DNA of 64,000 nucleotides from an uncultured Acholeplasmatales bacterium (GTDB lineage Bacteria; Bacillota_I; Bacilli_A; Acholeplasmatales; Anaeroplasmataceae), in the NCBI GenBank assembly GCA_944324705.1, contig CALUXI010000008.1:1-64000 (forward strand), given 5' to 3'. Numbering within the stretch: position 1 is the first letter of the stretch; every line of letters begins with the position of its first letter. Shown piece by piece: positions 37,602-42,068 of this stretch. The notes below the pieces were generated by a model. That model had not been told where the DNA came from. It searched no databases and was given only the letters and a program-made list of their open reading frames with translations. The position numbers and the translations under genes were made by a program.

Positions 37602-38267
37602 TTAATTCTTTTTTTCATTGATATTATCTAAAGATAATTGGACAATTTTATTATAGAACTTGCTAACTGGGTAATAGGTCTTACGATGAATTTTACAAGG
37701 ACCATATTTTTCAAGAGCTTCAATATGATTTTTTGTACAATAACCTTTATGTTTTAAAAAACCATAATGGGGATATTTAACATCCATTTTAGCCATATAA
37801 TCATCTCTAGTTACTTTAGCAATAATACTAGCGGCTCCAATACTAGCTGATAGGGCATCACCATGAATTATAGAATCATGAGGAATATCTAGTTCATGAA
37901 GTGGCATAGCATCTATTAAACAATATTCCGGCTTTATTTTTAAAGCTTTAATTGCCGCAAGCATGCCAAGTTTAGTAGCTTGATAAATATTAAGTTCATC
38001 AATTTTTTCTTCATCAATAAACACAGTGCTTATAGCTAAGGCTTTCTTTTTTATTATTTTAGCTAATTCCAATCTCTTTTTTGGAGATAGTTTTTTTGAA
38101 TCATTAATGCCACTAATATGTTCAAGAGGAGACAAAATAACAGCCGCTACAACTAAAGGTCCGGCTATAGAACCTCTTCCTACTTCATCAACACCACATA
38201 CTAATTTGTAACCTTCATCATATAGAGCTTCTTCTCTTTCATAAAGATTAATCTTCTGGTCGTTCAT
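37602..38267 (-). CDS. rnhB: Ribonuclease HII
   Basis: Removes ribonucleotides from DNA and RNA primers. The 221-residue protein shows the family N-terminus LVCGVDEVGRGSIAGPLVVA with the catalytic Asp-Glu (about 22-41), the second Asp in CLIDAMPLHEL near residue 118 and the late Asp in IIAKVTRDDYM near residue 150. All DEDD residues are present. It overlaps rbgA by 20 bases, the conserved Bacillota rbgA-rnhB pair. A terminator follows. Confidence 0.96.
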   Translation of the reverse strand: MNDQKINLYEREEALYDEGYKLVCGVDEVGRGSIAGPLVVAAVILSPLEHISGINDSKKLSPKKRLELAKIIKKKALAISTVFIDEEKIDELNIYQATKLGMLAAIKALKIKPEYCLIDAMPLHELDIPHDSIIHGDALSASIGAASIIAKVTRDDYMAKMDVKYPHYGFLKHKGYCTKNHIEALEKYGPCKIHRKTYYPVSKFYNKIVQLSLDNINEKKN

Positions 38268-39123
38268 AACTAATAGCTCCTAACCTTGCATTTTTAACAT
38301 CTTGTAATATTAATCTATAGGTTTTATTTAAGTCAATTTCACCTAAGGACTTCAAGCAACCTCTTTTTTGGCCAATTTCTTCTATTATATCTTTAGTATC
38401 ATTTAATTCATTTAATAAATATCTTTTCTTTAATAAATCAGGATAATTAGCTTTAATATAATCTATTGCATAATAACATAATTCTTCATGAGGTAGTATT
38501 TCATCTTTAATCATACCACAAATAGCCAAATTATAACCTGTTTTTTCATCCTTTAATTTAGGATACAAAATACCTGGGGTATCTAAAATTATATAATTTT
38601 TATCAATTCTTAGCCATGTATTAGTATTCTTTGTAATACCTGGTTTATTACCAACATTTAAACTACTTTTACCAGCTAAACGATTGATGAAAGTTGATTT
38701 GCCAACATTAGGAACTCCAATAACACATATTTTTATTTCCTTATTAATAATCCCCTGTTTTTCACGTTTATCTAAAATAGATTTACTTGCTTTAGCAATA
38801 TAGTTTTTAATTAAACTTATATTTTTACTATTAATCATATCACAATCTAAGGCTAATAACCCTTCAGCATTAAAGTGTTCAATAAATTCTTTAGTTATTT
38901 TAGGATCAGCCATCAATGACTTTACTAATATAATTAAACGAGCTTTATTTTTTATTAAACTAGAAAAAAGAGGATTAGCACTAGATAAAGGAACACGTGA
39001 ATCTCTTAATTCAATTATTAAATCAACCAATTTTAACTTAGCTTCTAACTCTCTTCTAGCCTTAGCCATGTGGCCTGGAAACCAGTTGATTACATTTCTA
39101 TTAATAATTCCATCTTTACTCAT
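38248..39123 (-). CDS. rbgA: Ribosome biogenesis GTPase RbgA (YlqF) with a changed G4 motif
   Basis: Assists late 50S assembly. The 291-residue circularly permuted GTPase has INWFPGHMAKARRELE at the N-terminus, G1 VIGVPNVGKSTFINRLAG near residue 134, GITKNT (G2) and LDTPGIL (G3). The position where family members have NKxD in LNKADxAD reads LIILVKSLMADP here (about residues 63-74), so both the Asn and the Asp are lost. The C-terminal RNA-binding segment GQKRGCLKSLGEIDLNKT is intact. Whether this protein still prefers guanine nucleotides is an open question. It lies between lepB (25-base gap) and rnhB (overlap). Confidence 0.9.
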   Translation of the reverse strand: MSKDGIINRNVINWFPGHMAKARRELEAKLKLVDLIIELRDSRVPLSSANPLFSSLIKNKARLIILVKSLMADPKITKEFIEHFNAEGLLALDCDMINSKNISLIKNYIAKASKSILDKREKQGIINKEIKICVIGVPNVGKSTFINRLAGKSSLNVGNKPGITKNTNTWLRIDKNYIILDTPGILYPKLKDEKTGYNLAICGMIKDEILPHEELCYYAIDYIKANYPDLLKKRYLLNELNDTKDIIEEIGQKRGCLKSLGEIDLNKTYRLILQDVKNARLGAISYERPED

Positions 39124-39148: not shown

Positions 39149-40033
39149 TTAAAATATTACTTGTTTATCCGGAATGCCAAAATCAGAAAAAGGATAATAC
39201 CGAAGAATAACCTTCCCGATAATATCGTCCTTATTAATGGCACCGAAAGTTCTAGAATCAGTACTATTTAATCTATTATCCCCAAAAACTAGATAAGAAT
39301 CATTAGGCATCACAATCTCATATATATTTTCGGTTATATCTAAACTTAATTTGATATGTTCCCATTCAAGAATTGTCAGCCTTTTTTCAATCAAATCTTT
39401 GCCATTGTACAAATAACCATCACGATAATAAAGTGTATCATTAGGACTGGCTACAATTCTTTTAATGTAAAAGTGATTAGGATCATTATAGTTAGCAGCA
39501 TCAATAACTACAACATCATCATTTTTAGGCTCGTAACCAAAATGCCATAACAAAACTTTATCACCATCATGATAAGTTTGTTCCATTGATCTTCCATCTA
39601 TAGTAACTGGAGTGATTATAAATAAAATAATAAAATTGATGATTACACATATAGAAGCTATAAAACTTAATAAATCATATATTTTATATCCAATATAAAT
39701 CTTTTTTAAATAACTTTTTTTTAATACTTTAAATAGAATACTAGCTCCAATTAAACCAATCAAACAAATAGAACCTAAAACAATTAACCAAACAAAATAA
39801 TAAGCTTCTGGATTTATAAATACTTCATGATTCAAAATCGTATCTGCTGTTAAGTTAGTTAATTTAACAAACTTATCATAATTATAGTAACAATAAGTAA
39901 TAAAGAAAATTAAAAATACTAATTTGATTCCTGCATCAAAAATGGTTTCTTTAAAAATATATTTTTGCCAAATTAAACTTTCAGATTCCTTAATAATGGC
40001 TTTATCTAAATATTTTTTATAAATTTTCTTCAT
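39149..40033 (-). CDS. lepB: Signal peptidase I with extra N-terminal membrane segments
   Basis: Membrane serine protease that removes signal peptides. The 294-residue protein has the catalytic Ser in TIDGRSMEQTYHDGD near residue 150 and the Lys in FYIKRIVASPNDTLYYRD near residue 192. VFGDNRLNSTDSRTFG near residue 248 forms the last conserved box. Bacillota enzymes usually carry one transmembrane segment before the catalytic domain. Here three hydrophobic segments are visible (about 35-53, 80-102, 119-141). I start at the ATG at 40033; the longer frame from a TTG lacks support. It overlaps the end of ftsK by 17 bases. Confidence 0.92.
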   Translation of the reverse strand: MKKIYKKYLDKAIIKESESLIWQKYIFKETIFDAGIKLVFLIFFITYCYYNYDKFVKLTNLTADTILNHEVFINPEAYYFVWLIVLGSICLIGLIGASILFKVLKKSYLKKIYIGYKIYDLLSFIASICVIINFIILFIITPVTIDGRSMEQTYHDGDKVLLWHFGYEPKNDDVVVIDAANYNDPNHFYIKRIVASPNDTLYYRDGYLYNGKDLIEKRLTILEWEHIKLSLDITENIYEIVMPNDSYLVFGDNRLNSTDSRTFGAINKDDIIGKVILRYYPFSDFGIPDKQVIF

Positions 40034-42068
40034 TAGATGACCTACCAAACATACGATCTAATTCAGCTAATGTCACTAATACTTCTCGACCCTTTGTTGA
40101 ACCAGTTTTTGGGCCTAAAATTTGTCTTTGTTCTAAAATTTGTACAATTCTTTGAGCTCTATTAAAACCAAAGCCAAAACTATTTTGAATACTATTTATA
40201 CTTGCTTGACCTTCCATTATGCAATACTTTGCTACTTCATAAATAGTTCCTTCACTCTCTTGATTTAAATTGTCTTTATAAGTAGGAGTTTCGGCAATTT
40301 GTTGTTTTAAATCTGCATGTGTAAACAAATATTGCGGTCTTGATTCATTTCTAATAAAATCACAAACATCATTTATTTCATCATCAGAAATAAAGGCACC
40401 TTGAACACGTTCTGGCAAATCATTATCTTTAATAAGCATATCACCACGACCAAGTAAAGTTTCTGCCCCGCCTTCATCTAAAATTGTATTACTATCAACA
40501 AATGAAGCAACTTTAAATCCAATACGGCAAGGAATATTAGCTTTAATATTACCAGAAACAATTTGTACTGTCGGTCTTTGAGTTGCTACTATCAAATGAA
40601 TACCAGCTGCCCTAGCTTTTTGTGTAATTCTTTTAATAGAATCTTCAACATCACTTGAGCAAGTCATCATTAAATCCGCTAATTCATCAATAACAATAAC
40701 TATATAACTCATATGTTTTAATTCTGTAAATTTTAAGGCTTTACGATTATAATCTTCAATATTTTTAACATGTGCTCTAGCAAGCATTTCATAACGTTTT
40801 TCCATCTCGTCTACAGCCCATTTTAAGGCTCCTGAAGCCATTTCAGGCTCACTAATAACTGGGGTTACTAAATGTGGTATTTCCTCATAGAAGCTCATTT
40901 CTACTTTTTTAGGGTCTACTAAAATTAATTTTAAATCTTCAGGACGATTTTTAACCAATAAACTTATTAAAATGGTATTCATACAAACAGATTTACCAGA
41001 TTTAGTGGCTCCGGCAACTAATAAGTGTGGCATATCATCAATAGCCTTATAAATAGTTTCACCATCAATATTTTTACCAAGCGCTACTCTTAAAGGACGA
41101 CCATCATTAACAAATGATTCATCAATCATATCGCCAAAATATACTGTTTCTGTCTTATCGTTAGGTACTTCAATACCAACTGTTTTCTTACCTGGAATTG
41201 GAGCCAAAATTCTTATTGATTTAGCGCCTAATTCCATTTGGAAATTATCATATAAGTTAGATACTTTATTAACCTTAACCCCAGATTGTAACATTATTTC
41301 ATAACGAGTAAAGGCTGGACCTTTAACATAACTTACAACTTCACCATCAACATCAAAGTCTTGAAGTAATTTATTAATAATTTCTTTCTTTTCAATAATC
41401 CAATCTGGTACTTCATCACTACTAATTTCAGAATGTTTGAATAAATTAAGTGGAGGTAATTCATAATCGTAATTAATTCTTTCTTTAACTGCTGGTTTTT
41501 CCTCTTCTAAGTCAGATATATCAAAACCCAAATTCAACTTAACTTCTGGTTTTTCTTCTTTAACTACGTTTTCTACCTTCGGAATAATAACTTTAGGTTC
41601 TTCAACATTATTTAAGCTTATATTAGGTCGTTTAATTTCTTCGTTTTCTTTATAATATATATGACTTTCAGTCGGTTCAACTTTTCTAAAGCTTAAATCA
41701 TCAGTTTCTTCTACAACTTCTTCCTCTACTTTTTCTTCCTCATATTTAACACCTAGAACTTCTTCACGTTTATTTTCATTTAAAATCTTAAAATCATAAA
41801 ATCTTGTTCCGTGTTTTTTAATTAATTCTTCATCACTTATATGCTTAGAGCCTTTAGGTCTAAAAGCATCATAAGCCTTATCTACATCAACAGTACCTTT
41901 ATTGTCAGGAATCAATAATTTATCTTTTACTTTACTACCAAAATAAGGAGAAGCGGCAATTGTTCTTTCAAAACCTGGTTTAGTCTTTTTTAAACCCTCA
42001 TATTTCGCATCAATTTGCGGAATTTTAAATTTTTCTTCAACTATAATTTTCCTTTCTTTATTCTTCAT
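40017..42068 (-). CDS. Soluble FtsK/SpoIIIE (SftA-like) DNA translocase
   Basis: Moves DNA during chromosome segregation. The 683-residue protein has a Walker A GATKSGKSVCMNTI near residue 350, Walker B VIVIDELADLMM near residue 455, an RGDML element, and a C-terminal winged-helix gamma domain (about 620-683: IQNSFGFGFNRAQRIVQILE) that reads KOPS/SRS-like DNA. Unlike FtsK and SpoIIIE, no transmembrane segments occur; the N-terminal 200 residues are charged and acidic (EEEKVEEEVVEETDD). This is the layout of soluble SftA. It follows GGAGG and overlaps the membrane protein gene upstream by 11 bases. Confidence 0.9.
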   Translation of the reverse strand: MKNKERKIIVEEKFKIPQIDAKYEGLKKTKPGFERTIAASPYFGSKVKDKLLIPDNKGTVDVDKAYDAFRPKGSKHISDEELIKKHGTRFYDFKILNENKREEVLGVKYEEEKVEEEVVEETDDLSFRKVEPTESHIYYKENEEIKRPNISLNNVEEPKVIIPKVENVVKEEKPEVKLNLGFDISDLEEEKPAVKERINYDYELPPLNLFKHSEISSDEVPDWIIEKKEIINKLLQDFDVDGEVVSYVKGPAFTRYEIMLQSGVKVNKVSNLYDNFQMELGAKSIRILAPIPGKKTVGIEVPNDKTETVYFGDMIDESFVNDGRPLRVALGKNIDGETIYKAIDDMPHLLVAGATKSGKSVCMNTILISLLVKNRPEDLKLILVDPKKVEMSFYEEIPHLVTPVISEPEMASGALKWAVDEMEKRYEMLARAHVKNIEDYNRKALKFTELKHMSYIVIVIDELADLMMTCSSDVEDSIKRITQKARAAGIHLIVATQRPTVQIVSGNIKANIPCRIGFKVASFVDSNTILDEGGAETLLGRGDMLIKDNDLPERVQGAFISDDEINDVCDFIRNESRPQYLFTHADLKQQIAETPTYKDNLNQESEGTIYEVAKYCIMEGQASINSIQNSFGFGFNRAQRIVQILEQRQILGPKTGSTKGREVLVTLAELDRMFGRSSNEENL

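What the first reader, a model, noticed from the sequence alone, without database searches (positions are those of the whole stretch)
38248..39123. RbgA with a lost G4 (NKxD) guanine-specificity motif
In this circularly permuted GTPase G1 (GVPNVGKST), G2 and G3 (DTPG) are intact, but the segment that reads LNKADxAD in Bacillus RbgA is LVKSLMAD here (codons GTA AAG TCA TTG). Both the Asn and the Asp that contact guanine are gone. The gene is otherwise complete and in its conserved rbgA-rnhB context. Either the GTPase has relaxed nucleotide specificity, or compensating residues exist, or it works without strict GTP control.
Basis: partly seen in the sequence, partly recalled or inferred. Interest (0 to 1): 0.6.

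Follow-up and report, generated by a model that had tools for sequence, protein, structure and literature searches.

The report
RbgA missing its usual guanine-reading aspartate
A protein that helps build the bacterial ribosome has lost the motif normally used to recognise GTP, and in about ten separate losses among its relatives a neighbouring loop always carries an aspartate that may take over the job, so a textbook GTPase rule seems to have a way round it that can be tested at the bench.

Summary
The gene at 38248-39123 (-) is a full-length, single-copy RbgA/YlqF with VKSL where B. subtilis has NKAD. It is not a sequencing error: five genomes of the genus (this one included) read VKSL with different codons; two more read SKSL and TKAL. 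Nor is it confined to this clade. Of 239 RbgA sequences compared, nearly all from Bacilli and Clostridia, 94 lack the G4 Asp, in about ten independent losses by parsimony. Among 79 named reference records, 78 keep it. The Asn slot is more permissive (T, M or C elsewhere).

The main result is a contingency. All 94 Asp-lost proteins carry Asp at the first G5 residue (Asp95 here), against 77 of 145 that keep the G4 Asp; none of 239 lacks both. No other column behaves this way. The catalytic motifs, the N-terminal His and the fold are kept, and the gene is under purifying selection. Best reading: a working ribosome-assembly GTPase whose base pocket was rebuilt on G5, with Asp95 (and usually Ile97) replacing the G4 carboxylate. 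Whether guanine selectivity is full or relaxed is undecided; no structure coordinates or biochemistry were available.

The parts
38248..39123 (-). rbgA (ylqF), complete, 291 aa, ATG start, overlapping rnhB by 20 bp
39067..39084 (-). N-terminal signature WFPGHM with His18
   Evidence: His18 invariant in 179 RbgA
38914..38925 (-). G4 slot, residues 67-70 VKSL in place of NKxD (Lys68 kept; Asn and Asp gone)
38905..38907 (-). Asp73 (in MADP), also present in canonical RbgA; precedes the helix 74-86 and so is probably its N-cap, not a substitute for the G4 Asp
   Evidence: Asp in 94/94 lost and 134/145 kept; secondary structure of the model
38821..38847 (-). G5 loop, residues 93-101 DCDMINSKN
38839..38841 (-). 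Asp95, first G5 position, present in every RbgA that lacks the G4 Asp
   Evidence: 94/94 against 77/145
38833..38835 (-). Ile97, G5 base-pocket wall position, I/L/V in 75 of 94 Asp-lost RbgA
   Evidence: wall position as described in PMC7952092
38692..38718 (-). G1 P-loop GVPNVGKST
38632..38634 (-). G2 Thr164
38572..38583 (-). G3 DTPG
37602..38267 (-). rnhB (RNase HII), downstream neighbour
39149..40048 (-). Signal-peptidase-like gene (lepB-like) upstream; name from the sequence, not searched

Best explanation
This is a working RbgA that still binds and hydrolyses a nucleoside triphosphate on the immature large ribosomal subunit, but reads the base differently. The Asp of NKxD, which in ordinary GTPases grips the guanine base through two hydrogen bonds, was lost in ancestors of this family and in several other Bacilli lineages. 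The loss is tolerated because the adjoining G5 loop carries an Asp at its first position (Asp95 here). That carboxylate should lie next to the vacated site and most likely takes over part or all of the guanine contact; a hydrophobic wall (Ile97) usually completes the pocket. Shown here: the motif loss, its recurrence, the strict Asp95 rule, conservation of the catalytic parts, purifying selection, and the fold (by model). Inferred: that Asp95 touches the base, that GTP is still preferred, and that the ribosome-triggered cycle is unchanged.
For: Asp95 in 94 of 94 Asp70-lost RbgA against 77 of 145 Asp70-kept; no sequence of 239 lacks both. Position 95 is the only column nearly fixed in the lost set yet present in only half of the kept set; the next such column is at 92% in the kept set. 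Minimum-change parsimony gives ten losses and five regains of Asp70; all ten losses fall on, or coincide with gain of, Asp95. Asp95 background is 48% of the Asp70-kept branch length (36.2 of 75.7), so roughly 0.48^10 = 6e-4 under independence. I/L/V at 97 is enriched inside the order (52/54 lost, 8/34 kept) and outside it (10/12 lost, 11/79 kept); a SpoIVA study names the residue two after the G5 Ser as part of the base-pocket wall (PMC7952092). His18, Lys68, P-loop, Thr164 and DTPG are unchanged in all 66 Asp-lost sequences checked. dN/dS is 0.10-0.18 between the window gene and three close relatives. The model has mean pLDDT 89, 97-98 over residues 61-80, and 1puj as top structural match. 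Der, Era, MnmE, Obg, YqeH, IF2, LepA, EF-G and EF-Tu of the same genome keep NKxD, and EngB, HflX and RsgA keep the Asp, so the loss concerns RbgA rather than GTPases at large.
Against: No coordinates were available, so the distance from Asp95 to the base was not measured. About half of Asp70-kept proteins also have Asp95, so it may merely permit the loss while doing something else. Many branches of the tree are weakly supported, and the paired-contrast tests had only 5-6 usable pairs and were not significant. Ile97 is not universal: 16 of 94 Asp-lost sequences have Lys there.
Confidence: 0.5

Rival explanations
1. Relaxed base selectivity without true compensation. The protein is a functional ribosome-activated NTPase that takes GTP, ATP or other purine nucleotides; specificity no longer matters because the ribosome stabilises the bound state. 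Asp95 serves the loop structure only.
For: The G4 Asp slot is poorly constrained once lost (S, N, T, L, K, G, M, Q), the pattern described as relaxed selection in SpoIVA (PMC7952092). Ile97 gives no base-specific hydrogen bond. Catalytic motifs stay intact.
Against: It does not explain why the G5 residue is always Asp and never Asn in 94 Asp-lost sequences, when Asn makes up 61 of 145 in the Asp-kept set. The Asp was apparently regained five times, which suggests some selection for it.
Confidence: 0.27
2. Switch to ATP. The rebuilt pocket prefers adenine, as in SpoIVA or YchF.
For: Known precedents where an altered G4 goes with ATP use (PMC7952092, PMC8779481).
Against: The features that go with ATP preference there are absent: G4 Lys is kept and the residue at G5 Ser+2 is Ile, not acidic; there is no NxxE.
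Confidence: 0.08
3. Pseudo-GTPase. RbgA here works as a structural placeholder on the ribosome and no longer depends on nucleotide.
For: Both base-contact residues of G4 are gone.
Against: P-loop, Thr164, DTPG and His18 are unchanged in all 66 Asp-lost RbgA checked, which is not expected if hydrolysis were dispensable; dN/dS is low.
Confidence: 0.06
4. Escape from (p)ppGpp. RbgA lost tight guanine binding so that the alarmone no longer competes with GTP and blocks 50S assembly.
For: (p)ppGpp is a competitive inhibitor in the RbgA pocket (PMC6912228) and this genome has two RelA/SpoT-domain proteins.
Against: Loss of the Asp would weaken GTP as much as ppGpp, since both carry guanine; other assembly GTPases in the genome keep NKxD; G005 of the same genus has no RelA/SpoT hit yet also lacks the Asp.
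Confidence: 0.05
5. Sequencing or assembly error, or a decaying gene.
For: The window lies in a draft assembly of 55 contigs.
Against: Five genomes share VKSL with different codons, frames are open and selection is purifying.
Confidence: 0.01

Closest known systems
RbgA/YlqF of B. subtilis and S. aureus (PDB 1puj, 6g0z, 6ppk)
   Same: Full-length homology, G4-G5-G1-G2-G3 order, WFPGHM signature, P-loop, DTPG and fold; rnhB as neighbour
   Different: NKAD is VKSL; the G5 loop is DCDMIN instead of SINSVN
SpoIVA, an Era-derived TRAFAC ATPase (PMC7952092)
   Same: G1-G3 kept while the G4 Asp is lost and poorly constrained, with a change in the G5 base-pocket wall
   Different: SpoIVA also loses the G4 Lys and gains an acidic residue at G5 Ser+2; here Lys68 is kept, Ile97 is at that slot, and Asp sits in the Ser slot
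YchF/Ola1, NxxE, ATP-preferring (PMC8779481)
   Same: Ribosome-associated P-loop protein with a non-canonical G4
   Different: Not circularly permuted; keeps an acidic residue in G4; different subfamily
Other Bacilli RbgA that have lost the G4 Asp (NKSS, CKSS, NKAK, TKST, NKFS and others)
   Same: Same Asp loss, with Asp95 always present
   Different: Many keep the Asn; the window's genus mostly loses both and has Leu at the Asp slot

Membership tests
RbgA/YlqF (TIGR03596) | Score above the curated equivalog cut-off over the full profile | tested here: met
   320.6 bits against 208.2, profile 1-276 of 276
RbgA/YlqF (TIGR03596) | Circular permutation (G4-G5 before G1-G2-G3) and N-terminal WFPGHM with His | tested here: met
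   His18 invariant in 179 RbgA. The G4 slot is in place but degenerate; NKxD cannot define this family, since 94 of 239 orthologues lack its Asp
RbgA/YlqF (TIGR03596) | RbgA fold including the C-terminal helical domain | tested here: met
   By model only: 1puj top match, TM 0.86/0.95, rmsd 1.6 over 273 columns
RbgA/YlqF (TIGR03596) | 50S-stimulated GTP hydrolysis and a role in 45S to 50S maturation | not testable with these tools
   Needs purified protein and ribosomal particles
Canonical guanine-specific TRAFAC GTPase | G4 NKxD (or TKxD) with the Asp | tested here: not met
   VKSL
Canonical guanine-specific TRAFAC GTPase | G1 P-loop, G2 Thr and G3 DxxG | tested here: met
   GVPNVGKST, Thr164, DTPG
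SpoIVA-type ATPase | G4 Lys lost and an acidic (or Q/N) residue at G5 Ser+2 | tested here: not met
   Lys68 kept, Ile97 at that slot
YchF-type ATPase | NxxE in G4 | tested here: not met
   VKSL
Pseudo-GTPase | Loss of P-loop or DxxG | tested here: not met
   Both intact here and in all 66 Asp-lost RbgA checked

The most novel reading that the evidence does not exclude
Guanine recognition in a whole set of RbgA proteins has moved from G4 to G5: an Asp at the first G5 position is enough, NKxD is dispensable, and evolution has taken this route about ten times, which makes RbgA a natural series for how a GTPase base pocket can be rebuilt.
Probability: 0.38. Interest if true: 0.72.

Novelty: new variant of a known kind. 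Interest (0 to 1): 0.52.

Why it matters
The Asp of NKxD is described as the main determinant of guanine specificity in TRAFAC GTPases (PMC7952092). Here an ordinary housekeeping GTPase, essential in B. subtilis, seems to do without it in many lineages while its catalytic parts stay fixed. The rule seen in 239 sequences (a carboxylate either in G4 or at the first position of G5, never neither) is simple, was not found in the papers searched, and can be tested with a few point mutants in B. subtilis RbgA, where growth, binding and hydrolysis assays already exist. If it holds, motif-based annotation that treats loss of NKxD as loss of GTP specificity would need a second look, and RbgA would give a worked natural example of moving a ligand contact from one loop to another.

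Tried and rejected
(1) Sequencing error: rejected by five genomes with different codons. (2) A paralogue with intact NKxD elsewhere in the genome: none; other hits are Der, EngB, Era, YqeH and MnmE. (3) Misalignment, with the downstream AD (Asp73) as the real G4 Asp: rejected, since canonical RbgA has both (NKADKAD), Asp73 is conserved in both sets, and the model places it just before helix 74-86. (4) A general GTPase change in this organism: rejected by intact motifs in the other GTPases. (5) Ile97 or Tyr100 as the universal compensator: associated, but not universal (16 of 94 have Lys97). (6) rbgA lost altogether in G003, which would mean dispensability: not shown; the topA contig ends 963 bp further on, so an assembly gap is possible. 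They were repeated with a checked pattern. (8) Independent-contrast tests on the tree: too few supported pairs to decide. (9) A paper I wanted on RbgA mutants (PMC3597669) is not held, so the catalytic role of the N-terminal His rests on my own knowledge.

Full report
What is there. Window 38248-39123 on the minus strand encodes a complete 291-residue RbgA/YlqF. It matches TIGR03596 at 320.6 bits over the whole profile and B. subtilis YlqF (1puj) end to end with E = 2e-74. It lies upstream of rnhB, overlapping it by 20 bp, and downstream of a signal-peptidase-like gene. An AlphaFold2 model has mean pLDDT 89 and finds 1puj, S. aureus RbgA and the RbgA-45S complexes as the closest solved structures (TM 0.86 by query length, rmsd 1.6). 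There is one copy in the genome.

The observation. In the gap-free stretch around G4, B. subtilis reads LLNKADKAD and the window ILVKSLMAD. Residues 67 and 70 are Val and Leu; Lys68 stays. The model keeps the normal G4 layout, a strand to residue 67 followed by a one-turn helix at 69-71, with block-mean pLDDT of 97-98. The codons differ between genomes: GTA AAG TCA TTG here, GTT AAA TCA TTG, GTG AAA TCA TTA, GTT AAA TCT TTA and GTA AAA TCA TTA in four relatives. It is therefore an inherited protein feature.

How far it spreads. In the same genus two more species read SKSL and TKAL; in the same family most read CKSS, NKSS, NKAN, NKAK, NKAT and similar. In an even sample of the class, using a pattern anchored on WFPGHM, 66 of 247 genomes matched NKxD and 21 matched a non-Asp codon in the slot; the remaining genomes matched neither pattern and were not classified. 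The non-Asp cases fall in several families, with motifs such as NKAK, NKAN, TKST, TKSN. Among 79 named reference records, 78 keep the Asp; the exception, NKTG, is a record titled SAR324 cluster. The first position is looser even when the Asp is kept: M in the Oceanobacillus group and T in others. So the Asp loss is the notable event, and the Asn loss an addition. The reference records were best matches to conserved peptides, so they are not a random sample.

The contingency. I aligned 239 RbgA proteins (94 without and 145 with the G4 Asp). At the first residue of G5 (position 95 in the window protein, the Ser slot of SAx) all 94 Asp-lost proteins have Asp. The 145 Asp-kept ones have Asp in 77, Asn in 61, Ser in 6 and Lys in 1. 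No protein lacks both carboxylates. I then asked whether any other column does the same: of 35 columns that are at least 97% one residue in the lost set, position 95 is at 53% in the kept set and the next is at 92%. On a tree built without the G4 and G5 columns, minimum-change parsimony gives ten losses and five regains of the G4 Asp. Every loss is on an Asp95 background or on the branch where Asp95 arises, although Asp95 makes up only 48% of the branch length where the G4 Asp is kept. Under independence the chance is about 0.48^10, or 6e-4. This number is rough, since many branches are weakly supported and the ten events depend on the tree; the supported paired contrasts are too few to test.

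A second, softer association is Ile, Leu or Val two residues on (position 97): 52 of 54 lost against 8 of 34 kept inside the order, and 10 of 12 against 11 of 79 outside it. It fails in the group of small genomes, where Lys is common. A study of SpoIVA describes this Ser+2 position as part of the wall of the base pocket (PMC7952092).

How it most likely works. The triphosphate side of the site is untouched: P-loop, Thr164, DTPG and the N-terminal His18 are unchanged in all 66 Asp-lost proteins checked, and the gene evolves with dN/dS of 0.10-0.18 against three close relatives, with synonymous sites near saturation. This is not a decaying protein or an obvious pseudo-GTPase. In canonical GTPases the G4 Asp makes two hydrogen bonds to guanine (PMC7952092), and the G5 Ser side chain lies beside it (my own knowledge of Ras Asp119 and Ser145, not confirmed in the library). 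An Asp in the Ser slot can therefore put a carboxylate close to the same base edge. I take it that Asp95 first coexisted with the G4 Asp, as it still does in 77 proteins, and then made the G4 Asp expendable. Whether the result is a fully guanine-specific or a more tolerant pocket is not settled.

Alternatives. Relaxed purine selectivity without compensation explains the free variation at position 70 but not the strict Asp at 95. An ATP switch lacks the marks known from SpoIVA (G4 Lys lost, acidic Ser+2) and YchF (NxxE). Escape from (p)ppGpp inhibition was considered because the genome has two RelA/SpoT-domain genes and (p)ppGpp competes in the RbgA pocket; but ppGpp shares the guanine, and G005 has no RelA/SpoT hit and also lacks the Asp. 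Other GTPases of this genome keep the Asp.

Novelty. Loss of NKxD in TRAFAC proteins is known (SpoIVA, YchF). I found no paper describing it for RbgA or describing a G4/G5 exchange of the kind seen here, but only open-licence papers could be searched. I rate it as a new variant of a known kind.

Limits. Many are draft or metagenome assemblies. No atomic coordinates of the model were exposed, so no distance was measured, and there is no biochemical evidence.

Noticed in passing
L243:946-2816 (G006 contig 32, same genus): rbgA lacks its first ~20 codons: the sequence upstream of the KARRE codons is replaced by DNA with a serine-recombinase-like ORF (342 aa from the listed start) and no in-frame start codon. 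This looks like an integrated element with its attachment site in the PGHMAK codons of rbgA, though a chimeric contig is not excluded.
   Followed up: partly
L242:1-963 (G003 contig 6 end): In G003 (99% complete) neither rbgA nor rnhB was found; the topA contig ends 963 bp further on in DNA with short fragmentary ORFs, so absence of the genes is unproven.
   Followed up: partly
L010, L015, L009, L011 (own genome): Asn of G4 is also replaced in RsgA (SKID), EngB (TKSD) and HflX (TKID) of this genome, while their Asp is kept.
   Followed up: no
L103, L105, L106 (G066, G130, G068): RbgA of some genomes in the order has an in-frame TGA in otherwise intact frames, suggesting TGA read as Trp in those lineages.
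   Followed up: no
L199 (record titled SAR324 cluster bacterium): RbgA with NKTG and Asp at the first G5 position, an isolated Asp loss in a long-branched sequence.
   Followed up: no
G000:C10:6898-7227 and G000:C31:12067-12429: The genome has two RelA/SpoT-domain proteins, one long (734 aa frame) and one short (237 aa frame), so (p)ppGpp signalling is probably present.
   Followed up: no
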